The notes under the pieces are model-generated. The model was not told the DNA's origin, did no database searches, and saw only the letters and a program-made list of their open reading frames with translations. Position numbers and translations under genes: made by a program. DNA of 64,000 nt from the IMG/VR virus record IMGVR_UViG_3300030503_000315, positions 151,316 through 215,315 of that record; one strand, written 5' to 3'. Shown here in pieces: positions 38,837 through 58,958 of this stretch; position 1 is the first letter of the stretch, and each line of letters opens with the position of its first letter. Source of the stretch: a virus.

Positions 38837-39039
38837 TGTACAACTCGTTTTGGAAAACTACAGAGGCAGTAGCGGTGTCCAAGGACTTCGATTACTCTGA
38901 GTACGTTAAGATGTGCCATGAGGAACGTGTCCCTGTTCTGTGTAGCGAATCATACAGCTTCATTCGTATGGCCTTCAACGCACAAATGGCTCAGAACTTC
39001 AGAAAAGGTAACGATGGCTTCGATAAACAAGAGGCTTAA
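38836..39039 (+). CDS. Hypothetical protein, 67 aa
   Basis: Coupled to its neighbour by TAATG. Small soluble protein with two Cys (VKMCHEERVPVLCSES). It overlaps the next gene by 26 bases. No family recognised. Confidence 0.5.
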   Translation: MYNSFWKTTEAVAVSKDFDYSEYVKMCHEERVPVLCSESYSFIRMAFNAQMAQNFRKGNDGFDKQEA

Positions 39040-39485: not shown

Positions 39486-39486
39486 T

Positions 39487-39795: not shown

Positions 39796-39809
39796 CGAGG
39801 AATAAGCAT

Positions 39810-40469
39810 ATGTCGTATAGCAAAGATATCAGTGAAGGCAATAACATTAGGCAATACCTGGTTGACAAGGGTGTGGAGACCCCCTACAAATTCAAGGCAG
39901 CTAGTCATGCCAGAATCGAAGAGTTGACGAAAGAGTTTATGCAGGAATTCGGACTTAATCTTGAGGACGACTCTCTCATGGAGACACCGCGTCGGATTGC
40001 GAAACTCTATGTCGATGAATACTTCTATGGGCTTAACTACGCCAACTGGCCAAAGGCCACGGTAGTTGAGAACAAGATGAATGTTGATGAGATGGTTGTC
40101 GAACGCAATATCATTGTCAATTCTCTTTGTGAACACCACCTACTTCCGATAGTAGGCAAGGCATATGTTGCCTACATCCCTTCCCGCAAGGTACTCGGGT
40201 TGTCGAAGCTTAACCGTATAGTGGATTTCTTCTCTCGCCGCCCTCAAATCCAAGAACGTTTGACCTTGCAAATCTACTATGCACTGTCAAAACTTCTTGA
40301 GACGGATAACGTTGCCGTCATGATCGAAGCGGAGCATCTCTGTGTAAAAACTAGAGGTGTTATGGATGCCTGCTCAGATACCATTACCAGTAAGCTTGGT
40401 GGAAGCTTCAAGGATGGTACAGTCCGTGCAGAGTTTATAGATCTATCGAAGGGGCTCGCGTCGAAGTAA
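39810..40469 (+). CDS. folE: GTP cyclohydrolase I
   Basis: 219 residues, the normal FolE length. METPRRIAKLYVDEYFYG, NSLCEHHLLPIVGKAYVAY (zinc Cys and catalytic His pair), LGLSKLNRIVDFFSRRPQIQ and EAEHLCVKTRGV (second zinc Cys) are all intact. It makes 7,8-dihydroneopterin triphosphate from GTP, the entry step of both folate and preQ0 synthesis, and supplies QueD here. Confidence 0.95.
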   Translation: MSYSKDISEGNNIRQYLVDKGVETPYKFKAASHARIEELTKEFMQEFGLNLEDDSLMETPRRIAKLYVDEYFYGLNYANWPKATVVENKMNVDEMVVERNIIVNSLCEHHLLPIVGKAYVAYIPSRKVLGLSKLNRIVDFFSRRPQIQERLTLQIYYALSKLLETDNVAVMIEAEHLCVKTRGVMDACSDTITSKLGGSFKDGTVRAEFIDLSKGLASK

Positions 40470-44077: not shown

Positions 44078-44471
44078 ACTTGATGAAGACAAACAGAAGG
44101 TAGCGATGCTATCAATGACGTTAGCCTCCCTGCAATCCAATCTATCGGAATATGCACAGAGGGCACGTCAAGCTGAAGAGATGGTTGGACTCTTATCGGC
44201 TAATTGGGATCATGATAAGGTAGGGATGATTCTCGCCAAACACATTGAAGAGCGCGCACAAGAACGAGCCATCCATCAACAGAATCTTATTCAGACGACT
44301 ATCACAGCTTTAACATCCGCACTAAAGTCAGATGATTACGATCAGATGCGTCAAATAGTAAATACAGTCGCAAAGGAATTGACAACTGCGACAATGAACC
44401 TGCATCAACTTTTAATCAAAGAAGAGAAATTGAAACAAAGGAGCCAGAATGGCACGCCAGCAAGGCACTGA
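44070..44471 (+). CDS. Hypothetical coiled-coil protein, 133 aa
   Basis: Overlaps the sigma-like gene by 8 bases and the next gene by 23. Almost entirely helical (LASLQSNLSEYAQRARQAEE), probably coiled coil. An AGTAAATA lies inside it (44357), 84 bases before the next start, possibly an internal promoter. Confidence 0.6.
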   Translation: MPRLDEDKQKVAMLSMTLASLQSNLSEYAQRARQAEEMVGLLSANWDHDKVGMILAKHIEERAQERAIHQQNLIQTTITALTSALKSDDYDQMRQIVNTVAKELTTATMNLHQLLIKEEKLKQRSQNGTPARH

Positions 44472-45936
44472 CCTAGACGAAGTAAAGACGTCGCGGGGCG
44501 GAAACAAAACGCGAATCGATGAAAAGATCGAAGTGCATACGTTGAAGCCAAACGTCTATGAGCAGCATCGTATCTTCGGTCCAACCTATACGTATTCTCA
44601 GTATTGGGTTGTTGGAAAGAAGAAGGATGGAAGCCCAACGAAGTTCCCAGTTGATAGTCCTTCTTGGGACCCTGTGAAACAGGAATATGATCGTAGCATC
44701 TACGATCCATGGTATGATTATCACATTTGGGAAGTAGAGAATGATGTAGATGAGAAGAAGCGTCTAATCCAGGTAGGTGTTAGTTATTGGACACTATCTA
44801 TCTCTCGCAAGAAACAGAAGGATGAACCTGCGCACCGTCCGAAACCTACGAAGGAAGAACTCAAGACTGGGTTCAAGGAAAAGAATTCAGACTCATACAC
44901 GCCAGTAGTTGCTTTGCGTCTGCCTTCGACTCCGGTTAAGAAGATTCAGGGTTTCAAAAGTATGAATGTGGTGGAGTCGAAGTCTGGAAGCACCAAGGCA
45001 TATCCAGTTTCGCATGAAAAGTATGGCCACGATGTTAGGATCAAGTTCGATAACGCCAAGGAAACTGCAGCAGGCAATCGATACGACGTCCAATACGTGG
45101 AGCGTAAGTCGCCTCTTACCGAGGAAGAACAGACAGAACTCAAATGGGATCTGTCTAATTTGGCAAACGAAGCTACCGAAGCACAAGTACGTAGCGATTT
45201 TGAAGGATGGGCAAAGAGAATGGGTATCAAGACTTCGAAGAAACGCAAGCACGACGTTGAAGAACTCGATGACGAACTCGAAGAAGATGAAGTAGACGAG
45301 GACGAAGATGAGGATGAAGACGAGAAGCCTGCTCGTGGTAAGAAGAAGCCTGCAAAGAAGGTAGCGGCGAAAAAGACATCCAAGCGTAAAGTTGTAGAAG
45401 AAGACGAGGAAGAAGACGAGGAAGATGAGGACGAAGATGAGGACGATCTGGATGAAGATCTAGACGAGGATGAAGATGAAGATGAACCCCCGAAACGTTC
45501 CAAAAAGAAAGCACCAGCTAAGAAGGTAGCCAAGAAGACTTCCAGGAAGTCCCGTGATGAGGACGAAGAAGACGAGGAAGATGAGGAAGATGAGGACGAA
45601 GAAGACGAAGATGAGGACGATCTGGATGAAGATCTAGACGAGGATGAAGATGAAGATGAACCCCCGAAACGTTCCAAAAAGAAACCCGCTGCGAAGAAGG
45701 TAGCCGCAAAGAAAACGTCCAAACGTAAGGTCGTCGAGGAAGAAGACGAAGATGAGGACGAGGACGAGGACGAAGAAGATGAGGATGATCTCGAGGAAGA
45801 CGAAGAAGAGGAAGATGAACCTCCGAAACGTACCAAGAAGAAAGCCCCGGCTAAGAAAGTAGCAGCCAAGAAGACTGCAAAGAAGAAGCCTGCTCGTCGC
45901 TCGAGGGATGAGGACGAAGAAGATGAGGACGATTGA
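44449..45936 (+). CDS. Putative ssDNA-binding protein with acidic/basic repeat tail
   Basis: 495 residues; AAAGGAGCC before the ATG. Residues 1-265 are a folded basic/aromatic domain (FGPTYTYSQYWVVGKKKDG, WYDYHIWEVENDVDEKK) that I take as a T4 gp32-like single-strand DNA-binding domain. The call rests on position before the recombinase and on the acidic tail, not on a clear motif. From residue 265 the chain alternates Asp/Glu runs of 20-40 residues with basic blocks (KKPAKKVAAKKTSKRK) four times. Acidic tails are normal in SSBs; the alternating basic, histone-H1-like blocks are not. The DNA of this part has long direct repeats. Confidence 0.6.
   Translation: MARQQGTDLDEVKTSRGGNKTRIDEKIEVHTLKPNVYEQHRIFGPTYTYSQYWVVGKKKDGSPTKFPVDSPSWDPVKQEYDRSIYDPWYDYHIWEVENDVDEKKRLIQVGVSYWTLSISRKKQKDEPAHRPKPTKEELKTGFKEKNSDSYTPVVALRLPSTPVKKIQGFKSMNVVESKSGSTKAYPVSHEKYGHDVRIKFDNAKETAAGNRYDVQYVERKSPLTEEEQTELKWDLSNLANEATEAQVRSDFEGWAKRMGIKTSKKRKHDVEELDDELEEDEVDEDEDEDEDEKPARGKKKPAKKVAAKKTSKRKVVEEDEEEDEEDEDEDEDDLDEDLDEDEDEDEPPKRSKKKAPAKKVAKKTSRKSRDEDEEDEEDEEDEDEEDEDEDDLDEDLDEDEDEDEPPKRSKKKPAAKKVAAKKTSKRKVVEEEDEDEDEDEDEEDEDDLEEDEEEEDEPPKRTKKKAPAKKVAAKKTAKKKPARRSRDEDEEDEDD
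45431..45510 (+). repeat. 80-bp direct repeat, copy 1
   Basis: Identical to 45605-45684, 174 bases later. Both encode a DE-rich block followed by PPKRSKKK in the tail of the putative ssDNA-binding protein. Recent duplication is likely because even third codon positions are identical. Confidence 0.85.
45605..45684 (+). repeat. 80-bp direct repeat, copy 2
   Basis: Second copy of the repeat at 45431. Recombination between the copies would delete 174 bases (58 codons) in frame, so tail length may vary between isolates. Confidence 0.85.
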
Positions 45937-45976: not shown

Positions 45977-46015
45977 AAGCCAGCCCGGACACCATGCTCT
46001 TGGCTGGCTTTTCTC
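45977..46015 (+). terminator. Terminator after the ssDNA-binding protein gene
   Basis: AAGCCAGCC (45977-45985) pairs with GGCTGGCTT (46002-46010), 9 bp, followed by TTCTC; the T run is short. Confidence 0.8.
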
Positions 46016-46028
46016 GTTGGTGAGCGGA

Positions 46029-46407
46029 ATGTCCAACATAAGACTGAATCGTTGTTTGCTTGGAGAGCACCTTGAGGATCTTACCAACCATTTTGGCACA
46101 AGTAAGATTATCCAAGCTCGGCTTTGGTGGGATAAATATCTTGAAGGTTCTACAGGTCACCATAAGGTATAGTATAAACCTGCAGTCAAGAAAGAATTCC
46201 CAGATTTTAGCGATACGAAAAAATGCAGATAAGCGTTTAATCGAAGTTAAGAGTGAGTATACGATTAAGAAGGCAAGAGAAAAACTACAAGCTGCATACA
46301 ACTGGGGGTTGGATAGAGATATTCCATTTGAAGTGTGGCTTTACCTGGGTAAGAATAAAGATTTGCATAGATTGACTTCTCCGGATCAATGGGAATCTTT
46401 TCTTTAA
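46029..46407 (+). pseudogene. Broken or recoded gene (amber stop plus frame change)
   Basis: Frame 1 from ATG 46029 reads MSNIRLNRCLLGEHL... to a TAG at 46170, and past the TAG continues sensibly (YKPAVKKEFPDFSDTKK) to the run AAAAAA near 46220. From there a different frame carries on (NADKRLIEVKSEYTIKKARE... to SPDQWESFL) and ends at 46407. That frame has no ATG of its own upstream, only a TTG at 46060. The simplest reading is a decayed gene with a nonsense mutation and a frameshift. Readthrough plus slippage on the A run cannot be excluded. No family recognised. Confidence 0.45.
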
Positions 46408-46420
46408 GATGAGGAATTTA

Positions 46421-47908
46421 ATGGCAACTAAGAAAGTAGCGGCTAAGAAAACAAGTCGCAAAGCAAGAAATGCAGAAGTTGATAAAGCTATAGATGACGA
46501 AGTTGGAGAATCAAAATCTAGTAAAAGTTTTAATGCTCTATCCTTCTATGCGGAGTCTTTGGATGAAGTAGCTCGTCGTCAAGATTTTGATTCTGATCTT
46601 ATGGAAGATATGCCACCAATGAGTACTGGTATTCTTGCACTAGATCTTTTGATGGGTGGTGGGATACGACCAGCGTGGTTTACCATGTTTGGCCCGGAGC
46701 AGAGCTGTAAGACAACGGGTGCTATCACCATCATGGCGGCTGCACTTAAGAATAAAGTGCCCATAGTGGCTCTTGCCGACTATGAGGGATCAACTCGAAA
46801 TTCTCGCCCTTATGTATCAAGTATTCTTAAACACTCTGGACTCAAGTTGTCCGCGAAAGATATTTTTGGTAAGAAAGATCCTACCACAGGTAAGTGGCAA
46901 ACAGCACCCTTAGTGCGCTACAGAGCAGAAACAATAGGGGAAAAATTCTTTGACTACCTAGCTGATCTGCTACGTACCCTACCAGATAAAAAATTCATAG
47001 CAGGAAAGTGGTGGCTGGTGTTTGATGATACAAAACAGAATAAAGCTAAGATAGGATCACATGCTAATCCATCCATGGCTAAAAAATATGGAAAGGGATT
47101 ATGGGTAGAAGCTGAAGATGGAACTATGCAAGCTTTGGTTTTGGTAGATTCTTATCCAGCAATGAATCCCTCATCTAACGATGAAGACGACGCCAATAAT
47201 TCTTTAGCTTTGCAGGCCAGAATGTTTAGCAAACATTTGCCTAGAGTAAAAGGTAGGATGGCATCAAAGATGGTAGCTGTAGTTGGTATCAATCAACTAC
47301 GGGCAGTACCCATGGCTATGTATGGTCCTAAAGAGGCCGAACCGGGCGGGGTAGCACTCAGATTTAATTCTGATGTACGAATAAAGTGGACTCCTATGAA
47401 GACTGGTGTTCCTTTCAATCCTAAATTTGACACGGAAGATTACCTGGAACAGGAACGTTCAGTTGTTGCTGAGGGTAAGGACAGATATCGTTATATCCGT
47501 ATTGCTGCGATAAAGAATAAACTTTGGAACCCTGGCCGCAAAGCGTGGATACGCTTATGGGTAACAGATGCCACAGGATCCGCAAATGGTTTCGATCCAT
47601 TCTTCGATACCGTGCATTATCTCAAAGAGACTGGGCAGCTAACTAACAAGAATCGCAAAGTCATGCTCCTTAATCTAGATGAGATGGGTAAGGCAAAGAA
47701 AACATGTGATTGGTTGACTCTCAAAACCTGGGTACTTGGTACTACAGAAGAGAAGAAGGCTATCTGCAAGACATTAGGTTTCGAGAAGGCATTTGATCTA
47801 CGCCGATTCTGTTTCTCTCAGATGGCTAAGGGTAGAGGTGAAGATCTCTACAACATGCAGAAGAACAAAGGTAAAGTTTCAGATGATGAATCGGAGAGTA
47901 AAGAATGA
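46421..47908 (+). CDS. RecA/UvsX-like recombinase
   Basis: 495 residues from ATG 46421 (AGGA upstream). STGILALDLLMGGGIRPAW and the Walker A loop FGPEQSCKTTGAI match the RecA/UvsX core. ALVLVDSYPAMNP gives Walker B and MVAVVGINQLRAVP the strand near the DNA-binding loop. The protein is longer than UvsX (about 390), with inserts between Walker A and B. It should form filaments on single-stranded DNA for recombination-dependent replication. Its N-terminus, MATKKVAAKKTSRKARN, copies the basic block found in the tail of the neighbouring ssDNA-binding protein. Base composition is more AT-rich than its neighbours. Confidence 0.9.
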   Translation: MATKKVAAKKTSRKARNAEVDKAIDDEVGESKSSKSFNALSFYAESLDEVARRQDFDSDLMEDMPPMSTGILALDLLMGGGIRPAWFTMFGPEQSCKTTGAITIMAAALKNKVPIVALADYEGSTRNSRPYVSSILKHSGLKLSAKDIFGKKDPTTGKWQTAPLVRYRAETIGEKFFDYLADLLRTLPDKKFIAGKWWLVFDDTKQNKAKIGSHANPSMAKKYGKGLWVEAEDGTMQALVLVDSYPAMNPSSNDEDDANNSLALQARMFSKHLPRVKGRMASKMVAVVGINQLRAVPMAMYGPKEAEPGGVALRFNSDVRIKWTPMKTGVPFNPKFDTEDYLEQERSVVAEGKDRYRYIRIAAIKNKLWNPGRKAWIRLWVTDATGSANGFDPFFDTVHYLKETGQLTNKNRKVMLLNLDEMGKAKKTCDWLTLKTWVLGTTEEKKAICKTLGFEKAFDLRRFCFSQMAKGRGEDLYNMQKNKGKVSDDESESKE

Positions 47909-48279
47909 TACCGCTTAACGTTGAGAAGTCGATGCATAATGAACATGTACCCAATACTTTAAGGATAGTAAAAGATGGTCCAACTTTTGCTGCCGGAGTT
48001 CCTTGGGTTTCGGATAATGCCCTATGTTTCTGGAAAGTAATTGAGGAAGATGAACAGATTTTCATCCAAAGAGTTCAGGATTACATAGAAAGTATGGTGG
48101 GTCACGCACAGCAATTCAAGACACACCTACCACTTATCCTCATGGATTTAAAGAATGGGCTATTCAAGTCTGGCGTTGATCTTATCATAGGTACTAGCGC
48201 TGAATTTGTGGAAAAGTGCAAAGCTTTTGTTGAACGCCCTATAGAAACAAAGATCAAAGTGACGAAAGTAATAAGGTGA
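47905..48279 (+). CDS. Hypothetical protein, 124 aa
   Basis: ATGA overlap with the recombinase gene. Soluble mixed protein (HLPLILMDLKNGLFKSGVDL). Its position suggests an accessory recombination factor; no family recognised. Confidence 0.65.
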   Translation: MIPLNVEKSMHNEHVPNTLRIVKDGPTFAAGVPWVSDNALCFWKVIEEDEQIFIQRVQDYIESMVGHAQQFKTHLPLILMDLKNGLFKSGVDLIIGTSAEFVEKCKAFVERPIETKIKVTKVIR

Positions 48280-48283
48280 ACCT

Positions 48284-48964
48284 ATGGCAAGCACCGTTAT
48301 GACGAAGAAGGATGAGGACGCGGCAGACTCTCTGCTCGCTGCCGTGATGACCATAGGTAGACCACTAAAGGAAACTCCAAAGAAGGAAAAGATACTTGTC
48401 CATCAGCAATGGAAAACCCAGACAGGTAGGCAGTCACGCTTCTTCTACAGGCCGACTATCTCTTTGGATTCAGAACTAGAGCACAGGAAAAAGATAGCTG
48501 AGCCTAAAGAGTTGGATCTCGTTGATTCTCAGGTAGCAGAGCGCGCAGAGTCGTATTCTAGGGAATTGCCATCGAAGTTAGATAGAAATATTGATAAGGT
48601 GAGAGAGTTTTGGTTGAAGAATGTTGCTCCACTGACACTAGCCGCTCAGGCAGGTAGCGCTCAAGCTAAAGATGTTGTTCAACGTACCTTGGGTGCTCCT
48701 ATAGATCAGGATCCTTTCCTTAAGTTCCAGAGGATGCTCGAGCAAGGTCTGACAATCAAGATGGCGAACTATCTTGTTACCTATCTGGGTATTCCTAAAA
48801 CCAAGGTATCGGAATTGATCGATGCCATAACACCCAAAAAGGAGGTTATGGTTTTCGGTCCAAATCATGGAGCTCCTCCACCGCAGCAAATGGATAACAG
48901 ACGTTCTCGTCAAGAGAAGCCTGAACCACCCAAGTCGAGGATCGATGATCCCGATCTAGACTAA
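48284..48964 (+). CDS. Hypothetical protein, 226 aa
   Basis: A basic first third (TPKKEKILVHQQWKTQTGRQ), a helical middle and a Pro/Gln/Arg-rich tail. Last gene before the terminator ahead of the terminase, so it ends the recombination run. It could be a head or terminase-associated protein; unknown. Confidence 0.65.
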   Translation: MASTVMTKKDEDAADSLLAAVMTIGRPLKETPKKEKILVHQQWKTQTGRQSRFFYRPTISLDSELEHRKKIAEPKELDLVDSQVAERAESYSRELPSKLDRNIDKVREFWLKNVAPLTLAAQAGSAQAKDVVQRTLGAPIDQDPFLKFQRMLEQGLTIKMANYLVTYLGIPKTKVSELIDAITPKKEVMVFGPNHGAPPPQQMDNRRSRQEKPEPPKSRIDDPDLD

Positions 48965-48966
48965 AC

Positions 48967-48996
48967 AAAGCCACCTGCAGTTTGGGTGGCTTTTCC
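48967..48996 (+). terminator. Terminator before the packaging genes
   Basis: AAAGCCACC (48967-48975) pairs with GGTGGCTTT (48985-48993), 9 bp, followed by TCC. Marks the boundary between the recombination and packaging blocks. Confidence 0.85.
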
Positions 48997-49010
48997 ATCT
49001 TTTGATCTCC

Positions 49011-49018
49011 AATTTCAC
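49011..49018 (+). promoter_or_regulatory. AATTTCAC motif before terL
   Basis: CCAATTTCACCC, 15 bases behind the terminator and 53 bases before terL; one base differs from the other copies. Confidence 0.3.
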
Positions 49019-49070
49019 CCTGCAGTAACGGAAGGTTGTATAACACCGATGAACTCTGCATGGTGATAAC

Positions 49071-51290
49071 ATGGAAGATATAGATAAACTACTGAAATTC
49101 AACGCCGACTCTCTCTTTCCTTCGCTCTTAACAGACGACCAGAAAGAACTGATCCACCGTGCCCGTAAAAAGAAAGCAGAAATTAAAAAGAAAAAGACGG
49201 GCATAAAGGTTAGATCCTACGAGTTGGACGTCAAGTCTGATGAATATGTATTGAAGGGTTGTGGATTAGATGACTTCGGTCAAGTAATCGACGACTTCAA
49301 TATTGAAAAATACATGGCGGACATGGAAGACCCTGAAACGGGAACTCTCCATGATCTTAAGATCGATACTCGCGATCTTCCTCTAGCCAAAAACTTCTAC
49401 GACTATTGCTTTAACCTGACAGGACGGAAGGTACACAAACCTTGGTCTCGCCAGTTATGGATCGGTGCCATGCTTCATGGCGAGATCTGCCCCTGCTGCT
49501 CCAAGAAAGAGTGGCTGGATATCAGCAACGTCCCCAAAGATTTTCCCAGCAAAGATCTGCCACAGTACCTTCAGTTCCTAGAGAATGGAAAATGTCCCAA
49601 ATGTAAGAGGACAAAGTGGGAACTGATTAAGGATCACGGTCTCCGCGACTACATCCAACTCGTATCAGTGTTGGGTCAGCGTTCGGGTAAGTCAAGTTCC
49701 GCTGCAATGTATGCGTCCTATCACTTACACCGGATGCTAAAGTTCCCCACCTATGCAACTCTAACGAACTCGATGCAGAGCTCAACGGAGTTGACAGGCA
49801 CCATGGTTAGCCTTTCTTTCGCCAAGGCAATCGGTGTTATGTGGACTCCGTTTCGTAAGTTGGTGACTGAAGAATCCGAATGGTACTCTGAGTACTTCCG
49901 GATGATGGATCACTATAAGAGCATGTACGGTAAAGAGCTGTATAGAACGTCTACCATGTACATGAACTTCGGCCTGAAGAACATCAAGATGTATCCTTCA
50001 GGTCCAAAGAGTTCAACGCTTCGTGGTGATACGCGCTTCCTGGCAATGCTGGACGAGTTGGGGTTGTTCAAACTTCCTTCGGGCAATGAAGAGGAGGATG
50101 AAAACTCCGAAATTGCAAACGCGGACGAGGCACATAAGTCGCTCTACAACAGCTTGACTACGGTCAACATGGCCTATAACGAGTTGCTGATGAAGGGGTA
50201 CAACACAGCACCACCGGCAATCCTCATGTCAGTGTCATCCCCGATGTCGATCCGTGACAAGGTGATGCGTCTCTATCGTGAGTCAAAGACGGAAGAAGGA
50301 TCCAAGTATATCCTAGGAGTGAATCTTCCTACGTGGGAAGTCAACCCACATATGACGCGCAACTCTCCTGTTATTGCAGCAGCGTACGCGTCCAATCCTG
50401 AAAAGGCAGAACGTGACTTTGGTGCTAACCCGCCTATTGTTCACTCACGTTTTCTCTCAGCGCAGTCCGTTAATGAAACGGTGTTCTCAGGTCAAGCAAA
50501 TAGCCATAGCCTGATCTATCAATTCGATCAACCTGAGATGATATACGGTAAGCTGGACAAGTCACGTCCTCTTCCGTATATGCCTTCGGTTGTCGCTCTT
50601 GATGCTGGGTCTACTAACAACTCGTTCTCAATCGCTGCAGGCTATTACGACTTCGACTCGGGTAAGACGATAGTCACAACATTACTTGAGTGTATGCCTC
50701 AACAGGGACGAAGGATCGACTTCAACTCACTGTACACCCACGTCATTCTTCCGCTTGTCAAGGCAACCAACGCGGTATGGATTGCTGCCGACCAATGGCA
50801 GTCGATTGATTTGTTGCATCGTACTAAAGCTGACATGGGAAATAATCCTCTGCAGAAGCCTCGCACCATGGCAACACAGTACTCACCGAAGCGCAAAGAC
50901 TTTGAGTCGTTTCGAGGTATGTTGGAATCCGGTAACATCATACTTCCACGTGCCAATGAAAAAGATGCACAGCGCGTCATGAACGGGGATATCGCCAACT
51001 ATAGAACAGAGATGATCGGCAAACCTGTAGAGCATTTGATGCTGCAGATGTTGACGGTGAAGGATGTAGGGGCTGCACGCTGCCCGGAGAAAGGTGAAGG
51101 CTATACCGATGACCTGTTCCGTGCGACTGTCCTCCTGGTCAATGCTATCCACAAACCAAAGTGTATGGAACGTCTTGTCGAAGCTCGAAATTTCAACTAT
51201 TCTGGTGAGCGGTCACGTATGCCTGATCCGATTTTTGTGTCCAGAGGATCACCAGTTAACATGGCTTTAGCCCGCGTGCTGCATCGTTAA
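49071..51290 (+). CDS. terL: Terminase large subunit
   Basis: 739 residues. A zinc-ribbon insert is seen at ICPCCSKKEWL and KCPKCKRTKW. Walker A is LGQRSGKSSSA (about residue 205), Walker B LAMLDELGLF (about residue 325), and the RNase H-like nuclease domain starts at VALDAGSTNNSFSIAAG (about residue 505), with WIAADQWQS and TDDLFRATVLL giving further acidic residues. TerL pumps DNA into the prohead and cuts it. It is larger than most TerL (about 500-600) because of its N-terminal extension and zinc insert. Confidence 0.9.
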   Translation: MEDIDKLLKFNADSLFPSLLTDDQKELIHRARKKKAEIKKKKTGIKVRSYELDVKSDEYVLKGCGLDDFGQVIDDFNIEKYMADMEDPETGTLHDLKIDTRDLPLAKNFYDYCFNLTGRKVHKPWSRQLWIGAMLHGEICPCCSKKEWLDISNVPKDFPSKDLPQYLQFLENGKCPKCKRTKWELIKDHGLRDYIQLVSVLGQRSGKSSSAAMYASYHLHRMLKFPTYATLTNSMQSSTELTGTMVSLSFAKAIGVMWTPFRKLVTEESEWYSEYFRMMDHYKSMYGKELYRTSTMYMNFGLKNIKMYPSGPKSSTLRGDTRFLAMLDELGLFKLPSGNEEEDENSEIANADEAHKSLYNSLTTVNMAYNELLMKGYNTAPPAILMSVSSPMSIRDKVMRLYRESKTEEGSKYILGVNLPTWEVNPHMTRNSPVIAAAYASNPEKAERDFGANPPIVHSRFLSAQSVNETVFSGQANSHSLIYQFDQPEMIYGKLDKSRPLPYMPSVVALDAGSTNNSFSIAAGYYDFDSGKTIVTTLLECMPQQGRRIDFNSLYTHVILPLVKATNAVWIAADQWQSIDLLHRTKADMGNNPLQKPRTMATQYSPKRKDFESFRGMLESGNIILPRANEKDAQRVMNGDIANYRTEMIGKPVEHLMLQMLTVKDVGAARCPEKGEGYTDDLFRATVLLVNAIHKPKCMERLVEARNFNYSGERSRMPDPIFVSRGSPVNMALARVLHR

Positions 51291-51296
51291 ACAGAA

Positions 51297-51304
51297 AATT
51301 TCAT
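51297..51304 (+). promoter_or_regulatory. AATTTCAT motif before the RuvC gene
   Basis: AAATTTCATCG between the terL stop and the next gene, 24 bases before ATG 51328. Confidence 0.33.
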
Positions 51305-51327
51305 CGTATTAAGTGAATGAGAACAGC

Positions 51328-52692
51328 ATGAAACGACCTAATGCTAGTGGTTCCAATAATCATCGCTTTGTAACACAAGGAACCTTTGAATCACAACTGT
51401 CCAAGAAGTTTGGTAACCACCGTTTAGAAATTCTTGAGTACAACGGTTCTCAATCTCTGCTTCGCTATAGATGCAAAAGCTGCAAGAAGATTTCTACACT
51501 AAGGATAGCCGCGGATCTTTTGAAAAGGAAATTCCCATGCTTCTGTGCTATGAGGCGCGAGAATGATCCCATCACCTGTTGGGAAGAAGAGATAATCGAA
51601 TATCTTCATGTGGATTTGAACTTTACTACCGCACAGATAGCTCAGCTGATTGGAATAGATCAGAATAGGATAGTCAAATATCTTCGTCGCGTCGAACTCG
51701 TTCAAGACGGCGACGAGCTGAACTCTAAGCGTACTGCACTGGAATATAAGAAAAATCAACCTAGTGTATCCCGCCAAGAATATGGATCATCCGCACATCT
51801 AGTGACTAGCAAGATCTACAATAGATACAGGCATATTGTAGATCCAAAAGGAAAGAGAGGTACTCGTTACCACCTAGATCATATTCTATCCATCTCAGAC
51901 GGTTACTCGAAGTTCGATGCGCCGCTCTCTCTCAGAGAACTTTGCCATCCTGCTAATCTCGCAATTATAACGGCGACTAAAAATTGTAGTAAAAGTAAGA
52001 AGAGTGGTCATACCATACTACAACTTCGAAGAAAAATTCAGCAGTTTGAGAAGTGCTATGGAATTGTAGAATTTCCCGAGTACTGGTCTTTGGATTTTTC
52101 GAATCTTAAAAGTAATAAGGTTAGTGATGGCATAAATATTCTGAGTATGGATCCTGGGACGTCAAACTTCGGAGTGTTTGGTGGCGTACTGTATGGGGCT
52201 AAAAGTTTGCACAGGGTCAAAGCAAGCGTCAGCACTATGCTAAGGAACCCCATCAAGGATCTTCGAGATAGTGAAGTTGCTCAGGAAAAATTCAGAAAGG
52301 AAATCAAAGACCTATGCCTTATGACAAGTCCTGATTTTATAGTCATGGAACGTTTTCAAGCGCGTGGTCTTAGAGGCACAACCGGTGAGCTTGTGTCATT
52401 TATGATAGGTCTCATAGCTGGTATGTTACCAAGTTTGCGTGAGTTACTTGGCAAACATATTACTCTAGTGACTCCTATAGCCAGTCAATGGAAGAATGCG
52501 GTGAACCGTGTCATAACACTGGACGACCTGTATTCACAGCTGAAACCAAAGCAGTACCATAGGTTGGATGCAGCATTACTTGGTATGAGTATTTTTCCGG
52601 TCAAGAATCCTTATGAAGGATTTTCAAAACAAAGGCAGCAGAAGTTGGTGAATTTGATCCAACGAGGGGACTTGTTCCCGGAAGGATGGTGA
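51328..52692 (+). CDS. HNH - RuvC-like nuclease fusion
   Basis: 454 residues (GTG 51313 would add five). Residues 45-90 hold a zinc-ribbon-like part (YRCKSCKK, FPCFC), residues 95-125 a helix-turn-helix (TTAQIAQLIGIDQNRIVKYL), residues 178-230 an HNH nuclease (YHLDHILSISDGYSKF, HPANLAIITATKNCSKSKKS). From residue 270 a complete RuvC-type RNase H fold follows, with catalytic MDPGTSNFG, FIVMERFQARG and HRLDAALLG. RuvC-like resolvases are usual near phage terminases, where they cut branched DNA before packaging. The fused zinc-HTH-HNH part looks like a homing endonuclease joined in frame. Confidence 0.82.
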   Translation: MKRPNASGSNNHRFVTQGTFESQLSKKFGNHRLEILEYNGSQSLLRYRCKSCKKISTLRIAADLLKRKFPCFCAMRRENDPITCWEEEIIEYLHVDLNFTTAQIAQLIGIDQNRIVKYLRRVELVQDGDELNSKRTALEYKKNQPSVSRQEYGSSAHLVTSKIYNRYRHIVDPKGKRGTRYHLDHILSISDGYSKFDAPLSLRELCHPANLAIITATKNCSKSKKSGHTILQLRRKIQQFEKCYGIVEFPEYWSLDFSNLKSNKVSDGINILSMDPGTSNFGVFGGVLYGAKSLHRVKASVSTMLRNPIKDLRDSEVAQEKFRKEIKDLCLMTSPDFIVMERFQARGLRGTTGELVSFMIGLIAGMLPSLRELLGKHITLVTPIASQWKNAVNRVITLDDLYSQLKPKQYHRLDAALLGMSIFPVKNPYEGFSKQRQQKLVNLIQRGDLFPEGW

Positions 52693-52697
52693 GAGTC

Positions 52698-53081
52698 ATG
52701 AGACCGAAAGTAAAGATCACGGGGTTTGTTAAGCAGGAGACGTACGTCGACCTGCTCTTGTACCAGGTACCTTCCGCGTTGGGATATCACATCAAATATC
52801 TCAAGTTGGGAGATGGTCCGGCTAAGTGGGATGCAGGAGGTGGACGAAGTTTTACTCCGCCAGAGATTCCAGTCACCTACGAGATGAGCTATCCTTTCGA
52901 TCTTGAACAGAACGCGCAAGAGATTGCTGATTGGGTGAGGAACACCCTCTCTGCCTTGAACTCATCCATTCGAATGATTATCTCAAATGGTGATTCGCAT
53001 GTAACGTTTCGTCCGGTGCATATTCAGTACGATCAGCACAAGGTGAAGTTATCGACACGCGTAAGTGTATGTGTTTTCTGA
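52698..53081 (+). CDS. Hypothetical protein, MRxxVKV opening, 127 aa
   Basis: ATG 52698 follows GGTGAGAG; ATG 52686 would overlap the previous gene. It begins MRPKVKITGFVKQ like the small proteins at 29737, 29977 and 33512. The rest is beta-rich (VTYEMSYPFDLEQNAQEIAD). Lies between packaging genes; possibly a small structural protein. Confidence 0.6.
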   Translation: MRPKVKITGFVKQETYVDLLLYQVPSALGYHIKYLKLGDGPAKWDAGGGRSFTPPEIPVTYEMSYPFDLEQNAQEIADWVRNTLSALNSSIRMIISNGDSHVTFRPVHIQYDQHKVKLSTRVSVCVF

Positions 53082-53091
53082 GAGGTCGGAT

Positions 53092-53376
53092 ATGAAGTTG
53101 AAACTACCACAGGCATTTTTGGAAGCTTCTGCAACAGTTAGTGAAGTGCAGGCCAAGGTCCAACCAGCGGCACCAAAAGAAGAAGTTAAGGTGCACGCTC
53201 GAATTGATATGAGTGCAGAAGTTGCAGGAGCTGGACTATGTCCCGAATGCCGTCAACCTATGCAGCAATCGATCGCCAATGGCATTCCTGTTTTGATTTG
53301 TCTCGAACACCGTATAGCCATTCCTACCCCAGACGCACCGGAGGTTACAAATGTTGAAGAAGAAAGTAAGAAGTGA
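53092..53376 (+). CDS. Small zinc-knuckle protein, 94 aa
   Basis: GAGG precedes ATG 53092. GLCPECRQPMQQ and, 20 residues on, LICLEHRIA give a CxxC...CxxH zinc knuckle. Ala/Val/Pro-rich linkers flank it. Overlaps the next gene by 26 bases. Function unknown. Confidence 0.6.
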   Translation: MKLKLPQAFLEASATVSEVQAKVQPAAPKEEVKVHARIDMSAEVAGAGLCPECRQPMQQSIANGIPVLICLEHRIAIPTPDAPEVTNVEEESKK

Positions 53377-54157
53377 GATGTCTTTCACTATCGACCCTGT
53401 AGATCATCCTGTCAGAGTCAAGAAGAAAAAAGTTAGAGAGTCCTTGAGTTCACCTCAGCGTGAAGATCAGGAATCGGTTGACGCTGCAAAGAAGTTGATG
53501 CGCAAGAAGCAGTTCAAGAACAAAAAGGCGCCTAGAGCTCCTTCCTCTGTAGAAGAAGCAGAGATTGTAGAAGCGGTTGTGAAGAAGAAAAAGAAGTCGA
53601 CCTCGTTGGTTCCCCACCAACATCCTCCGACTGATCTTGTAGTGATGGGCAGGAAGCGCATTTCGAAGCTAGTTAAGAAGGACATGAACTCCATTATCGG
53701 TGACGATGCGGAGGAAATGCAAAATCTGTTCGAAGATGGCTCGACAGACCAGGCGACGCAGATGTTGAACCGTCGTCTTATCCAAATGTGTATCGACATC
53801 ATACCTTCATTAGAGACCGGAGTACGGAACTCTAATGGGCGTTACTCTGTGCATGCATTGAACAACACGATCCAGACCATACGGGAGTTAATGATCGATC
53901 TACAATCTGCACAGGATAGAGGTGCGATAGGCATGTCGATTGTAGATCAGATTATTCGTCCCACCGTTCTCGACATTGCAACGAAGATAGTTGAAGAGCA
54001 GGCGACGGTGTTGTCTGAGGTGAAAGATTTGATACCTACGGAAGTCTATACAAGATTCCGTCAAGCACAGATCGATAGCCGTAACCGGTTGGGTTCCATG
54101 ATGAATCAAAAGTTCGAAGCGATTAAGGAACAGACGGTAAATTTCCTCCAAAGATGA
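53351..54157 (+). CDS. Hypothetical helical protein, 268 aa
   Basis: GGAGG at 53341 fixes the start at ATG 53351. A Lys-rich first 85 residues (RVKKKKVRESLSS, KKKKKSTSLVP) are probably disordered and nucleic-acid binding. The remaining 180 are helical (IQTIRELMIDLQSAQDRG). Position between terminase and portal would suit a small-terminase or head-completion protein, but no motif proves it. Confidence 0.65.
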   Translation: MLKKKVRSEMSFTIDPVDHPVRVKKKKVRESLSSPQREDQESVDAAKKLMRKKQFKNKKAPRAPSSVEEAEIVEAVVKKKKKSTSLVPHQHPPTDLVVMGRKRISKLVKKDMNSIIGDDAEEMQNLFEDGSTDQATQMLNRRLIQMCIDIIPSLETGVRNSNGRYSVHALNNTIQTIRELMIDLQSAQDRGAIGMSIVDQIIRPTVLDIATKIVEEQATVLSEVKDLIPTEVYTRFRQAQIDSRNRLGSMMNQKFEAIKEQTVNFLQR

Positions 54158-55080
54158 CGATGACGAAGATTTCTATTTGGTCGCCATGTAAAAATGAAGA
54201 TGAGTACGAACAAATAGTTCAGGATCTATTCTTCTTAAAACTAGCGCCTACACTTCTCAAATCTAAAAACTCTAGATTTGAGAGTACTGTATTGCAGAGA
54301 GCTTGGAACCTTCAGGTAGAGAGTCAGGAAAGAGCTAGGAATATTAGAAGACGAAAGCCCTATTCATTAGAGGAGATATTTTATGTTTACGTACTGATGG
54401 ATCCTCGCAAGCCCGGCCTATATGAATACCGATTCAAAGATAAATTACTCGTGCTACCATTTGAACCTTTCTACGTGGGCAAGGGGAAAAATGACAGAAT
54501 ATATGTTCATAATCTTGAGGTTCAGAAAGATCATGCCCATAGATTTCAAAGGCATAAACATAATCTCATCCGCAAGTTACATAGTCTTGGACTAAATCCA
54601 GTGGAGAAGAAATTATCTAAGTTGGAAATAGAAAGCATCGCCTATGCGAAAGAAATTTGGTTGATAAAAGTCATAGGAAGATCTAATCTATCCAGAGGTC
54701 CATTGACTAATGAGACTGATGGTAAAGAAGGTAGTACTGGACTCATCCAAAGTAGCCTTACCATAGCAAAAAGAGTCGAAAAGCTTATTGGTCAGAAAAG
54801 AACAGAAGAAACAAAAGCTAAGATGGCTATGGCGGCTCGCGGTAGGACTCATGTGACTTCGGAAGAAACCAAAGCAAAGATTAGGGCTTCAGTCACAGGA
54901 TTTAAACATACGGAAGAAGCTAAAGCTAGAATAGCTAAGGCCGCAGGAAATAGACCCCATAGACCAATGTCAGAAGAAACAAAAGCTAAATTGAGGGCGG
55001 CGTTCTTGGGGAAGAAGAAGTCAGCAGAACATATTGAGAATATGCGCAAGGCATGGCAAGTTCGAAAGGTAGTAGGATAG
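54154..55080 (+). CDS. GIY-YIG homing endonuclease with NUMOD3 repeats
   Basis: 308 residues, ATGA overlap with the previous gene. FYVYVLMDP and PFYVGKGKNDR (about residues 76-115) are the GIY-YIG motifs, with RKLHSLG and ESIAYAKEIWLIKVIGR completing the domain. The C-terminal third has three to four NUMOD3-type DNA-binding repeats (SEETKAKIRASVTGFKHTEE). No intron signs surround it, so it is free-standing. High AT content marks it as an immigrant. Confidence 0.9.
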   Translation: MTMTKISIWSPCKNEDEYEQIVQDLFFLKLAPTLLKSKNSRFESTVLQRAWNLQVESQERARNIRRRKPYSLEEIFYVYVLMDPRKPGLYEYRFKDKLLVLPFEPFYVGKGKNDRIYVHNLEVQKDHAHRFQRHKHNLIRKLHSLGLNPVEKKLSKLEIESIAYAKEIWLIKVIGRSNLSRGPLTNETDGKEGSTGLIQSSLTIAKRVEKLIGQKRTEETKAKMAMAARGRTHVTSEETKAKIRASVTGFKHTEEAKARIAKAAGNRPHRPMSEETKAKLRAAFLGKKKSAEHIENMRKAWQVRKVVG

Positions 55081-55106
55081 GTAGTAGCTAATAAGGGGAA
55101 TTAGCA

Positions 55107-55535
55107 ATGGACGACGAAGAACATGGGAAAGTACAGTGGTTGAAAACTCCTGAGATGCTTGGATTTTTGAAGGCATACTTCATGGATACACGACCCGAAG
55201 TCCACGTAGAGTTAGTTGAAGCCAAAAGAGAAGTTACGTGGATGGCAATACCCAAGGAAGTAGACAAAAGACCAAAGATTATTGATACCCCGTTTGAGTT
55301 CTTTCTCAACGCTCAAATACACGCCTCACAAGATCCAGAAATATTGGTTGAAGACATCTGTGTCACTCTATCCGATATGTGCAGATCGTGGAAACTTGTG
55401 GACGATCCAAGGCATTACATAACGCTAAGGATTCCTCAGACAGTTATCCTCACTCCCTCGGGTTCAATTCAGTTAACCATAGTTGCTTCTATGTTCACTG
55501 AAACTCTAGGCCGTGATTTATTCCTCCGAGCCTGA
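55107..55535 (+). CDS. Hypothetical protein, 142 aa
   Basis: Starts 26 bases after the endonuclease. Soluble mixed protein (LKAYFMDTRPEVHVELVEAK, TVILTPSGSIQLTIVASMF). No family recognised. Confidence 0.65.
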   Translation: MDDEEHGKVQWLKTPEMLGFLKAYFMDTRPEVHVELVEAKREVTWMAIPKEVDKRPKIIDTPFEFFLNAQIHASQDPEILVEDICVTLSDMCRSWKLVDDPRHYITLRIPQTVILTPSGSIQLTIVASMFTETLGRDLFLRA

Positions 55536-55536
55536 C

Positions 55537-55692
55537 ATGGAAATGCAACCTTGTTTATTCTGTATAGCAAAGTTTGGATTTGTCCTGATTATGTTTTCCT
55601 ACCTGGCAATGGAGCTCATAGAGATCTGTGCCCCAGGTGAGACGTGGTACGATCTACTGGCGAACCATAGAAAACGCCGAGGCTACGAATGA
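55537..55692 (+). CDS. Small membrane protein, 51 aa
   Basis: One base after the previous stop and ATGA overlap with the next gene. CLFCIAKFGFVLIMFSYLAM is one hydrophobic helix with a CxxC at its start; the tail is basic (NHRKRRGYE). No family recognised. Confidence 0.5.
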   Translation: MEMQPCLFCIAKFGFVLIMFSYLAMELIEICAPGETWYDLLANHRKRRGYE

Positions 55693-56165
55693 TCCTGGAT
55701 GCACAAGAGATCAAGCTAGCGGTAGCACAGTATCTGACGAGAAAGAGACGTATGGCAGTCACTTTCGAAGTAGGTGTAGTCAAAGGTGGCAGTCTTAGGG
55801 CGGACGTCTTTGGAGTCAACCTTCGTCGTAATGTCGTTATCGCAGAAGTGAAAAGTAGTATGGCAGATTTTCGTTCGGACAAGAAGTGGCGAAAGTACAT
55901 TCCATTCTGTTCGCAGTTCTACTTCGCTTTCGAAGAGTCAGTATACCAAAAGCTTAAGAAGGAATTGCCAAAAGACGTGGGCATCATAGTTGTCCGTCCC
56001 AAACCTGAAGGCAAAAGGTTATACCCAATCAGAGTTGTTCGTCGAGCTAAATCTCAAGAGATAGATCCCGAAGTACTACTTGACCTAGCACTTCGTATGG
56101 TGTATCGAACATCTGATTTCAATGGGTATAGGAAGATAGTAAACGGTAAGGTTTATAAGCCATGA
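55689..56165 (+). CDS. MmcB-like PD-(D/E)XK nuclease
   Basis: 158 residues. SLRADVFGVNLRRNVVIAEVKSS holds the D...ExK core of a PD-(D/E)XK nuclease (about residues 37-59), and MADFRSDKKWRKYIPFCSQF matches the MmcB (DUF2161-like) family of small DNA-repair nucleases. It may act in DNA repair or processing of packaged DNA. Coupled to genes on both sides. Confidence 0.8.
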   Translation: MILDAQEIKLAVAQYLTRKRRMAVTFEVGVVKGGSLRADVFGVNLRRNVVIAEVKSSMADFRSDKKWRKYIPFCSQFYFAFEESVYQKLKKELPKDVGIIVVRPKPEGKRLYPIRVVRRAKSQEIDPEVLLDLALRMVYRTSDFNGYRKIVNGKVYKP

Positions 56166-57004
56166 TTCGTACTTTGTTCACTAGTGTCAACCTTTTGGGA
56201 GACACTCTGGTTCAGACACCAGCACTGCGAATATACAAGCAACAGCATCCTCAGGAAGAGATACATTGGCTTGTTCAGGATCAACCACATACCAGAGAAG
56301 TCTGCACGGGCATGGTTGAAGCGGGTGTAGTGGACAGATTAATGTTTGAGATTGATTGGGATATCTTACTTAAGACGAATTATGAAGGCTACGACAGAGT
56401 TCATAGGATGAACGTCGAAGAGCTTTGGAGACATAGACGGAACAATGGTCATATGTCTCAGGCCTTTGGTTCGGTCATAGGCGTAGAGATTCCAGACGAT
56501 CAAATACTTCCGATAGTACCGGTGCCTGCTCTCGACTCTAGATACGAAGTTTCAAAGAACACACTGGTCGTATCTCCTTTATCCTTCAGTAAGATTACTT
56601 CGAAAGATGCAGGAGCAGATGGAGAGAAATCGATCTCTTGGGAATGTTGGCAGGGATTGATCGACAGATTTATCCAATCGGGTAGAGTCGACAAATGCGT
56701 AATGTTGATGGCACCGAATGATGAGGATCCTCCACTGGACATCCAGGTACTAAGGCTACCGCTTGGTCAAGCTCTGGCATACACCAAGGCAAGTTCAGAG
56801 AATGGTGGTGCTTATGCAGGCGTCGAAAATGGTTTCACTCACGCCGCTGCAGGTTTAAAACTTCCTACGTTTTGTGTCCACCCTAAAGCTCCGGATCCTG
56901 GGTGGGCTTCCTATCACAAGTTCCAACACTACAGAGTTGCAGTGACGGAATGTCCTAAGAACAACGTAGAACAAATATGGTCCTGCTGGAAAGACAGGCT
57001 CTAA
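56162..57004 (+). CDS. Glycosyltransferase family 9-like protein
   Basis: 280 residues. VNLLGDTLVQTPALRIYKQ at the start and YAGVENGFTHAAAGLKLPTF near the end are the donor-binding landmarks of heptosyltransferase-type GT9 enzymes. The central part is shorter than in bacterial enzymes (about 350 residues). The product could decorate virion proteins or host LPS. ATGA overlap with the nuclease gene. Confidence 0.75.
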   Translation: MIRTLFTSVNLLGDTLVQTPALRIYKQQHPQEEIHWLVQDQPHTREVCTGMVEAGVVDRLMFEIDWDILLKTNYEGYDRVHRMNVEELWRHRRNNGHMSQAFGSVIGVEIPDDQILPIVPVPALDSRYEVSKNTLVVSPLSFSKITSKDAGADGEKSISWECWQGLIDRFIQSGRVDKCVMLMAPNDEDPPLDIQVLRLPLGQALAYTKASSENGGAYAGVENGFTHAAAGLKLPTFCVHPKAPDPGWASYHKFQHYRVAVTECPKNNVEQIWSCWKDRL

Positions 57005-57017
57005 AAAGGAATCAAAA

Positions 57018-58958
57018 ATGTTTTCCAAAAGTCGCATCCTAGGAGTGAACGGAAAGTCAATCAACGTTCAATCTCATTATCCTGGTCAAAGTCTTATAGC
57101 CTCCAAGGCACGTGCATACAACGCGGGTGAATCTCACCAGGTTACTGCAGGCTTAGGTTCGGGTTCTATTGGACCAGCTAGTGCATCCGTCCAAGGTTTC
57201 TGGGCATCGTCCTACCAGTATTGGACGACGGGTATCATTCCAGCAGATCCACATCTAATTGATACTTCGACACTAGCATTATTTTACCGTGATATATATT
57301 TCTTTGACAACGTGGCCGGTGCCTGCGTTGATATCAAGGCACGTTTCCCTTATTCCAAGTTCGACTTGCGTGGCTTGGAAGACAAGGAGATGCAACCGTT
57401 CCACGATGCTATTGAACAGTTGAACCTTGGACAGATGATGCCGCTGATTGCCACGGCACATATGGTCGATGGATTCTTCTGCGGTTCACTTGTGTTCGAC
57501 TCTAGGACAAAGCGATTCCTGGATGTTCTGTTGCATGATGCATTGTCTTGCGCAGTTATCCCATCACCGTTCTACAACATTGATCCGACCATCAATGTTC
57601 GCGTGGGCCAGGCGACTCAGCAGTTTATGCATGATACTTCAGAATATGCACGTCGCTACCTGAACTCGATGCCTTCGCAGTTTATCGATATGTTGCGGTC
57701 GGGTGCGTTCACCCTCGATCCGGTTACGACGATGTTTGTCCCTCGCAGGTCGACGACAGATCGTGCTTATACATCTTATCTGCATCGTATCCTCCCGTCT
57801 TACCTGATTGAGAAGACATTGTTCCGAGGTACACTCGTTGAGGCTCAGCGTCGTCAGCGTGCCATGACTCACCTGACAGCAGGTGATGATACGTGGACAC
57901 CTACAGGGGAAGAATTGCTTGCCCTAGTTGAACAGTTCCAGGCAGCCGAATACGATCCTCTTGGTGGTTGGGTCTCGACCCGTAATGCAGTGCAAGCTGT
58001 TGACCTTCGTCCGGGTGGCGATTTCTGGAAGTGGACAGACATGTCCGATATCCTAACTCCGTACAAACTTCGGGCATTGGGTGTATCGGAAGCCCTGCTT
58101 TCCGGTGATGCATCTTTCGCCTCAGCTGAATCTGCATACTCGACATTCCTTGAAACCTGTAATGCAGATCGCGAGGACATGACTGAACGCGTATTCGATT
58201 GGAAGATATTCCCACTAGTCGCAGTGACGAACAACCTCTATAAGGATGCCTCTAAGCGTTCTAATCACAATGACATCGTGGATTTCCTGTTCAACCGTAA
58301 CAATCGGGCGAACCTGAAGATGCCTACTCTCCATTGGCGTAAGTCATTGGAAGCGAAGGGTGAAGAGAACATGGCTGAGCTCCTTCAGATGGCTTCGGAT
58401 CACAACATCCCTATCCCAATAAAGATGTGGCTCGCTGCTACTCACATTGAACCTGAGGAGCTCCTGCGTGACCTGGAGGAAGACAAGCGTCTGCGTGAAA
58501 AGCTGGAAGCATTCACTGGTAAGGATATGTCCTATGAGGCAGAGCAGGAAGCCCAAGAGCGTATGCAAGGTGCTGGTGGCGAAGCAGGAGGTGGCGGAGA
58601 AGACACTGAATTTAATGATGAAGATAGTTATAGTGAGGATCGTGGAACAACTGGCGAGCCCGAACGTAGGGAAGCTGGTGTAATCAATGGTCCGATCACT
58701 ACGCAAGCTATGAAGAACATGATTCAGGGCCGTAGGGTTCCTCTTCTTGCGCGCGAATTTGGTGACACTTCAGATAGTTTTGAGTTAACCAAAACGGGTA
58801 AGATTCGCCACGTACCATCTATCGTAGCCGCAGGTCGTCGTCAACGTATGGATGATATGACTATGAAGATTGCACGCAAAGCAGATAAGGATCCGCATTA
58901 CAGGGAATCTCTGAAACGCAGGAACGCAGAGAAGTTGGGGAAGACACGAATAAAGTAA
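57018..58958 (+). CDS. Portal protein
   Basis: 646 residues starting just after the GT9 gene. A long mixed domain with DIYFFDNVAGACVDIKARFP, an arginine-rich helical region and DILTPYKLRALGVSEALLSG with ASAESAYSTF (the wing/stem region typical of large phage portals). The C-terminal 150 residues are Glu/Gly-rich and then basic. The portal forms the 12-subunit DNA gate at one head vertex and docks with TerL. The call rests on these patterns plus position and size. Confidence 0.8.
   Translation: MFSKSRILGVNGKSINVQSHYPGQSLIASKARAYNAGESHQVTAGLGSGSIGPASASVQGFWASSYQYWTTGIIPADPHLIDTSTLALFYRDIYFFDNVAGACVDIKARFPYSKFDLRGLEDKEMQPFHDAIEQLNLGQMMPLIATAHMVDGFFCGSLVFDSRTKRFLDVLLHDALSCAVIPSPFYNIDPTINVRVGQATQQFMHDTSEYARRYLNSMPSQFIDMLRSGAFTLDPVTTMFVPRRSTTDRAYTSYLHRILPSYLIEKTLFRGTLVEAQRRQRAMTHLTAGDDTWTPTGEELLALVEQFQAAEYDPLGGWVSTRNAVQAVDLRPGGDFWKWTDMSDILTPYKLRALGVSEALLSGDASFASAESAYSTFLETCNADREDMTERVFDWKIFPLVAVTNNLYKDASKRSNHNDIVDFLFNRNNRANLKMPTLHWRKSLEAKGEENMAELLQMASDHNIPIPIKMWLAATHIEPEELLRDLEEDKRLREKLEAFTGKDMSYEAEQEAQERMQGAGGEAGGGGEDTEFNDEDSYSEDRGTTGEPERREAGVINGPITTQAMKNMIQGRRVPLLAREFGDTSDSFELTKTGKIRHVPSIVAAGRRQRMDDMTMKIARKADKDPHYRESLKRRNAEKLGKTRIK

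What the first reader, a model, noticed from the sequence alone, without database searches (positions are those of the whole stretch)
51328..52692. Zinc/HTH-HNH module fused to a RuvC-like resolvase next to the terminase
All three RuvC acidic motifs are intact and the HNH part also looks complete, so one chain may carry two different nucleases. Known HNH plus RuvC proteins (IscB, Cas9) insert HNH inside RuvC; here HNH lies wholly upstream. It may be a homing endonuclease that captured its own target gene, and it could make the resolvase site-specific.
Basis: partly seen in the sequence, partly recalled or inferred. Interest (0 to 1): 0.68.

Follow-up and report, generated by a model that had tools for sequence, protein, structure and literature searches.

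The report
Homing endonuclease fused to phage resolvase
A giant-phage gene joins a selfish DNA-cutting enzyme (a homing endonuclease) head-to-tail with the phage's own RuvC-type DNA-junction resolvase; a related phage carries the same fusion with both active sites kept, and other phages carry a different homing-type module on the same resolvase, so resolvase genes look like a recurrent landing and capture site for such selfish enzymes.

Summary
Window 51328-52692 (+) is one intact ORF: putative zinc knuckle, helix-turn-helix, complete HNH nuclease, short linker, complete RuvC-like resolvase, directly after the large terminase of a Sarumanvirus-like jumbo phage. It is not an assembly error: two other IMG/VR contigs are 100% identical, and a divergent relative (L039, 42% identity) has the same HTH-HNH-RuvC fusion. 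Between them HNH is as conserved (51%) as RuvC (54%), while flanking segments fall to 18-24%; all HNH and RuvC active-site residues are kept. Nine unfused relatives share a CAATTT leader before ruvC; the fused ORFs start right behind that leader, and L039 has no start codon in the linker, so RuvC is probably made only as a fusion. The closest named HNH relative, BcepSaruman gp171, shows the process: it sits inside the 5' end of gyrB and is absent from BcepSauron. An unrelated homing-type module (zinc ribbons plus DUF7487) is fused to RuvC in L041; a degenerate version persists in isolated Xanthomonas/Erwinia phages. Best reading: a homing endonuclease captured in frame at the 5' end of ruvC, both nucleases probably active. 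Site-specific resolution is untested.

The parts
49071..51290 (+). large terminase subunit (upstream neighbour)
   Evidence: phrog_17415 E 5e-242; 58-60% identical to the TerL just upstream of unfused ruvC in BcepSaruman/Sauron, L088, L093, L094, L098
51297..51309 (+). AATTTCATCGTAT, retained ruvC leader element (promoter-like, role unknown)
   Evidence: the only AATTTYANNRTAY match in the window, 0.39 expected; CAATTT precedes ruvC in 9/9 unfused Saruman-type relatives against 17/362 control ORF starts; L088 has CAATTTCATCGTAT
51328..52692 (+). fused ORF, 454 aa from ATG (459 aa from GTG 51313)
   Evidence: 100% identical in L002
51472..51546 (+). putative zinc knuckle/ribbon CxxC...CxC (C54, C57, C76, C78, numbered from GTG)
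   Evidence: sequence; low model confidence; absent in L039
51577..51690 (+). helix-turn-helix-like three helices
   Evidence: AlphaFold helices 84-96, 101-108, 112-121, pLDDT about 80-88; weak HTH family hits
51772..52059 (+). HNH (His-Me finger) nuclease domain; D-H at 51877-51882, N at 51955, N at 51982, K at 51991
   Evidence: invariant residues over 14 homologues; pLDDT about 95; 51% identity to L039
52060..52131 (+). inter-domain linker, partly conserved in L039
   Evidence: 44% identity over 27 aa; in-frame starts here are a TTG without good SD, none in the L039 linker
52132..52689 (+). RuvC-like Holliday junction resolvase domain; D 52150, E 52348, H 52558, D 52567
   Evidence: phrog_18317 E 1e-28; PDB RuvC fold matches; catalytic residues invariant

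Best explanation
A homing endonuclease of a phage HNH family inserted at the extreme 5' end of the ruvC resolvase gene, just behind its leader and terL, in an ancestor of this jumbo phage and of the L039 phage, and its reading frame became continuous with ruvC. The product is one chain: zinc/HTH parts bind a target, HNH nicks or cuts endonuclease-free alleles (most likely the terL-ruvC junction or ruvC 5' end of co-infecting relatives) so that the fused gene is copied in by recombination, and the C-terminal RuvC resolves branched DNA during replication, recombination and packaging. Because the insertion supplies the N-terminus of the phage's only detected RuvC of this family, it is hard to delete and shares its expression. 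Shown by sequence: the architecture, intact active sites, shared ancestry of the fusion with L039, unfused relatives at the same site, retained leader, and mobility of a same-family HNH gene. Inferred: nuclease activity, target site, continued homing.
For: Single ORF and domains; not an assembly artefact; independent diverged fusion L039 behind its own TerL, with HNH 51% and RuvC 54% identical against 18-24% in HTH, first linker and C-terminus, which argues for constraint on HNH; window+L039 clade 100/99; only one RuvC of this family found in the 215-kb record; same terL-ruvC order without fusion in BcepSaruman, BcepSauron, L088, L093, L094, L098; ruvC leader directly before the fused ORFs; no start codon in the L039 linker; closest named HNH relative gp171 inserted into the gyrB 5' end in BcepSaruman and absent from BcepSauron with 96-98% identical flanks; the phage carries other homing endonucleases (GIY-YIG at 54154 and 60236, HNH_3 at 14681); low GC3 of the N-terminal part (0.36-0.41), like the GIY-YIG genes.
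Against: No cleavage, target site or homing event is shown for this locus; no remnant of an older ruvC 5' end is visible in the 37-bp gap before ATG 51328. Zn knuckle and HTH are poorly conserved or missing in L039, so DNA targeting may be degraded or changed. Only two diverged HNH-RuvC fusions are known, so constraint rests on one comparison. The best ATG has no strong Shine-Dalgarno site. Proteolytic separation of the domains cannot be excluded.
Confidence: 0.66

Rival explanations
1. Domesticated enzyme: the former homing endonuclease no longer homes; its DNA-binding and HNH parts now serve the phage, for example guiding the resolvase or helping terminase in packaging, as the HK97 HNH protein next to terminase does.
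For: Adjacent to TerL in a packaging/recombination gene block; HNH conserved like RuvC; HK97 HNH near terminase helps cos cleavage (PMC10448857); a degenerate N-module kept in PhiXhv/Ep032 suggests retained non-homing use.
Against: Nearly all relatives, including those with the same gene order, do without it; the closest named HNH relative behaves as a mobile gene.
Confidence: 0.2
2. Neutral remnant: the HNH part is an inactive passenger that only happens to be in frame; only RuvC matters.
For: HTH and Zn parts diverge fast; in PhiXhv/Ep032 an analogous module has lost its apparent catalytic motif.
Against: HNH 51% against RuvC 54% identity between window and L039, with every invariant HNH residue kept.
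Confidence: 0.09
3. Two junction resolvases in one chain: the HNH part is an endonuclease VII-like junction nuclease working together with RuvC.
For: phrog_1035 'endonuclease VII' hits the HNH part weakly, E 4e-5; endonuclease VII is also a His-Me finger enzyme (own knowledge).
Against: No zinc cysteine quartet around the HNH core; the HNH profile finds no endonuclease VII structure in the PDB; clear relatives are free-standing HNH proteins.
Confidence: 0.04
4. Artefact: misassembly or frameshift error merges two adjacent genes.
For: The two halves exist separately elsewhere.
Against: Two further identical contigs and the diverged fusion L039 with its own ribosome-binding site before the HNH part.
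Confidence: 0.01

Closest known systems
Free-standing phage HNH homing endonucleases (BcepSaruman gp171; phrog_5104/phrog_23051-like proteins)
   Same: Same HNH core (D-H, N, N, K invariant), N-terminal DNA-binding parts; gp171 inserted at the 5' end of an essential gene
   Different: Here the reading frame runs into the host gene instead of ending at a recreated start codon
Unfused RuvC-like resolvases of jumbo phages (phrog_18317; BcepSaruman gp245, PaBG, Erwinia Alexandravirus phages)
   Same: Same catalytic residues and, in Sarumanvirus-like phages, same place after terL
   Different: About 180-250 aa with no nuclease module
DUF7487/zinc-ribbon-RuvC fusions: L041, and a degenerate form in Xanthomonas PhiXhv-12/-15/-16 and Erwinia Ep032
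   Same: Homing-endonuclease-like module joined N-terminally to the same resolvase family
   Different: Unrelated nuclease-like domain (PF24308, with a YPD...EVK motif that looks PD-(D/E)XK-like) instead of HNH; that motif is lost in the isolated phages
HNH domains fused N-terminally to Rnl2 RNA ligases in phages (described in PMC7824862)
   Same: HNH at the N-terminus of a nucleic-acid enzyme in one chain
   Different: Partner is a ligase, not a junction resolvase
IscB/Cas9
   Same: HNH and RuvC in one protein
   Different: There HNH is inserted within RuvC and an RNA guides it; here HNH is wholly upstream, RuvC is contiguous, and no Rfam family was found nearby

Membership tests
RuvC-like Holliday junction resolvase (phage type) | RNase H-like fold with DPG...E...HxxD catalytic set | tested here: met
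RuvC-like Holliday junction resolvase (phage type) | cuts four-way junctions as a dimer | not testable with these tools
   needs biochemistry
HNH homing endonuclease | complete HNH (His-Me finger) core homologous to mobile phage HNH proteins | tested here: met
HNH homing endonuclease | presence/absence of the gene at the same site in relatives | tested here: met
   terL-ruvC without insert in Saruman, Sauron, L088, L093, L094, L098; same-family gp171 present/absent in gyrB
HNH homing endonuclease | cuts the insert-free allele and is copied into it | not testable with these tools
   needs cleavage and mixed-infection assays
IscB/Cas9 (RNA-guided RuvC-HNH) | HNH inserted between RuvC motifs | tested here: not met
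   HNH 51772-52059 lies wholly before RuvC 52132-52689
IscB/Cas9 (RNA-guided RuvC-HNH) | associated guide RNA | tested here: not met
   no Rfam family at gathering threshold in 46000-58000; an undescribed RNA would be missed
T4 endonuclease VII | zinc cysteine quartet around the HNH core | tested here: not met
   no such cysteines conserved in the HNH segment
T4 endonuclease VII | sequence relationship of the HNH core | tested here: inconclusive
   phrog_1035 hit E 4e-5; no PDB profile hit
HK97-type packaging HNH next to terminase | conserved part of the packaging module across relatives | tested here: not met
   absent from nearly all relatives, including those with the same gene order

The most novel reading that the evidence does not exclude
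The fusion is a working cut-and-resolve enzyme: HNH makes the site-specific break that starts homing and the attached RuvC resolves the resulting recombination junctions near the same site, so homing efficiency or crossover outcome is raised in cis, and the phage's general resolvase becomes partly site-directed.
Probability: 0.18. Interest if true: 0.8.

Novelty: new variant of a known kind. Interest (0 to 1): 0.58.

Why it matters
Homing endonucleases normally sit beside, or inside introns or inteins of, essential genes; capture as a permanent domain of the essential enzyme is a rarely documented end state. Here it occurs in the resolvase gene with at least two unrelated homing-type modules, in intact and degenerate forms, which gives a series from mobile gene to fused gene to leftover domain. 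It also pairs the enzyme that starts homing recombination with one that can finish it, which makes cis-coupling of cutting and junction resolution directly testable.

Tried and rejected
IscB/Cas9-like reading: rejected by domain order and no guide RNA family found. Endonuclease VII double-resolvase reading: weak profile hit only, no zinc quartet, no PDB hit. Assembly error: rejected. Intein: no splicing-domain hit in the family searches and HNH lies N-terminal to RuvC. Pfam, NCBIfam and PDB sequence searches with the whole protein gave nothing significant. tblastn against plasmids: none; scans of bacterial/archaeal genomes with the RuvC and HNH alignments: none. The structure model of L041 had too low confidence in its nuclease-like region to confirm a PD-(D/E)XK fold, so that label rests on the DUF7487 match and the visible motif only. 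A possible native ruvC N-terminal tail (xYxLP) kept as linker in the fused proteins is suggestive but too short to rely on. The CAATTT leader is not a window-wide motif.

Full report
What is there. The window lies in a 215-kb virus record. ORF 51328-52692 (+), with an alternative GTG start at 51313, encodes 454 (459) aa. From N to C: a CxxC...CxC putative zinc knuckle, a three-helix HTH, an HNH domain, a linker of roughly 25 residues and a RuvC domain. Residue numbers below start at GTG 51313. The AlphaFold model made from an alignment of window and locus proteins has mean pLDDT 79, about 95 in the HNH core and mostly 90-96 in RuvC, low in the zinc part, and pTM 0.50, so the relative placement of the domains is not known. 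Foldseek finds bacterial RuvC structures in the PDB and, in the viral library, phage resolvases and the BcepSaruman HNH protein.

Both active sites are complete. D280, E346, H416 and D419 are invariant in 15 RuvC homologues. D189, H190, S193, G197, N215, N224 and K227 are invariant in 14 HNH homologues, nearly all free-standing phage proteins.

It is real. Contigs L002 and L022 from two other IMG metagenome records are 100% identical over 5320 and 4197 bp; L002 spans the whole ORF. More telling, L039 (a contig from a third metagenome) has a 415-aa HTH-HNH-RuvC protein, 42% identical, starting some 40 bases after its TerL stop, with a GGAG ribosome-binding site. Region by region the identity is HTH 23%, first linker 18%, HNH 51%, second linker 44%, RuvC 54%, C-terminus 24%. 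A dead HNH passenger should not be as constrained as the resolvase; this is one pairwise comparison, so it is evidence rather than proof.

Where it came from. In BcepSaruman and BcepSauron the order is RecA, hypothetical, TerL, RuvC... portal, with an unfused 208-aa RuvC. Their TerL and those upstream of unfused ruvC in L088, L093, L094 and L098 are 58-60% identical to the window TerL. Among the roughly 65 IMG/VR loci inspected only the window phage, L039 and L041 have an N-terminal extension above 200 aa. A CAATTT element lies 29-53 bases before ruvC in all nine unfused Saruman-type loci examined, against 17 of 362 control ORF starts; L039 keeps it and the window has AAATTTCATCGTAT, matching CAATTTCATCGTAT of L088. 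These loci are related, so they are not nine independent observations. The fused ORF therefore begins directly behind the ruvC leader, which places the insertion at the 5' end of ruvC. L039 has no ATG/GTG/TTG in the linker; the window has a TTG without a good Shine-Dalgarno sequence and an ATG that would remove the first RuvC strand, so separate RuvC synthesis is unlikely, though proteolysis is not excluded.

How such an insertion works is visible in the closest named HNH relative. BcepSaruman gp171 (24% identity over 189 aa, E 9e-13) is absent from BcepSauron although the flanks are 96-98% identical. In Saruman the original gyrB start (MAEVKKQSKKYDSADINTLRFPE...) survives as a remnant upstream of gp171, and a diverged but equivalent start (MATKKKYDSTDITTLRFPDNIIANPGMYIGG) overlaps the gp171 stop by 11 nt, after which gyrB is again nearly identical to Sauron. 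This is the pattern expected from homing into the 5' end of an essential gene with co-conversion. The window lineage looks like the same process with the frame left open into the host gene; that last step is inference.

Recurrence. L041 carries zinc-ribbon modules (DUF4379) and a DUF7487 segment (PF24308, E 9e-16) with a YPD...EVK motif in front of RuvC. Xanthomonas phages PhiXhv-12/-15/-16 and Erwinia phage Ep032 carry a zinc-ribbon module that aligns to the L041 protein through this region, but with the motif lost (VPS...AVS) and RuvC intact (PhiXhv-16 and Ep032 were read in full, PhiXhv-12 and -15 only matched in the search). In the RuvC tree window+L039 group at 100/99, PhiXhv groups with an unfused protein (89/85) and L041 is separate; the label needs three changes, though the strongly supported branches alone do not exclude one origin. 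The unrelated nuclease types argue for at least two captures.

Function. Jumbo phages commonly carry a RuvC-like resolvase without RuvB (PMC7824862). Homing in T4 uses phage recombination functions including resolvase (PMC2988022), and homing endonucleases are enriched near terminase and other essential genes (PMC10448857). The best-supported view is a homing endonuclease captured by ruvC, both nucleases probably active. Domestication as a packaging or targeting aid is the main rival.

Novelty. In eight searches of the held open-access library I found no description of a homing endonuclease fused to a RuvC resolvase; the library is limited. HNH fusion to phage Rnl2 ligases is described. I therefore class it as a new variant of a known kind.

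Noticed in passing
L007 2586-3840 (BcepSaruman gp171/gyrB) and L110 (BcepSauron): HNH gene inserted into the 5' end of gyrB, leaving a gyrB remnant upstream and a recoded gyrB start downstream; empty in BcepSauron. A clean natural homing case with a probable target around the PGMYIGG codons.
   Followed up: yes
window 20963-23287 and 23289-24206: Family A DNA polymerase split into two adjacent ORFs (DNA_pol_A profile positions 29-232 and 233-308) with no endonuclease gene between.
   Followed up: partly
window 36417-40469: Cluster of 7-deazaguanine pathway-like genes: QueC, PTPS/QueD-like, radical SAM/QueE-like and GTP cyclohydrolase I; suggests modified phage DNA.
   Followed up: partly
window 54154-55080, 60236-61387, 14681-15163: Further homing-endonuclease-like genes: two LEM-3-like GIY-YIG (one with NUMOD3) and one HNH_3.
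   Followed up: partly
L039 3-80 and 4160-6520: TerL of the L039 phage is preceded by an intein-like C-terminal stretch (VITHNC) and its DNA methylase-like ORF contains an intein-like insert.
   Followed up: no
window 51297-51309 and upstream of ruvC in relatives: Conserved CAATTT leader before ruvC in Saruman-type phages, role unknown.
   Followed up: partly
window 44449-45936: ORF with a long repeated acidic (Asp/Glu) and Lys-rich tail.
   Followed up: no
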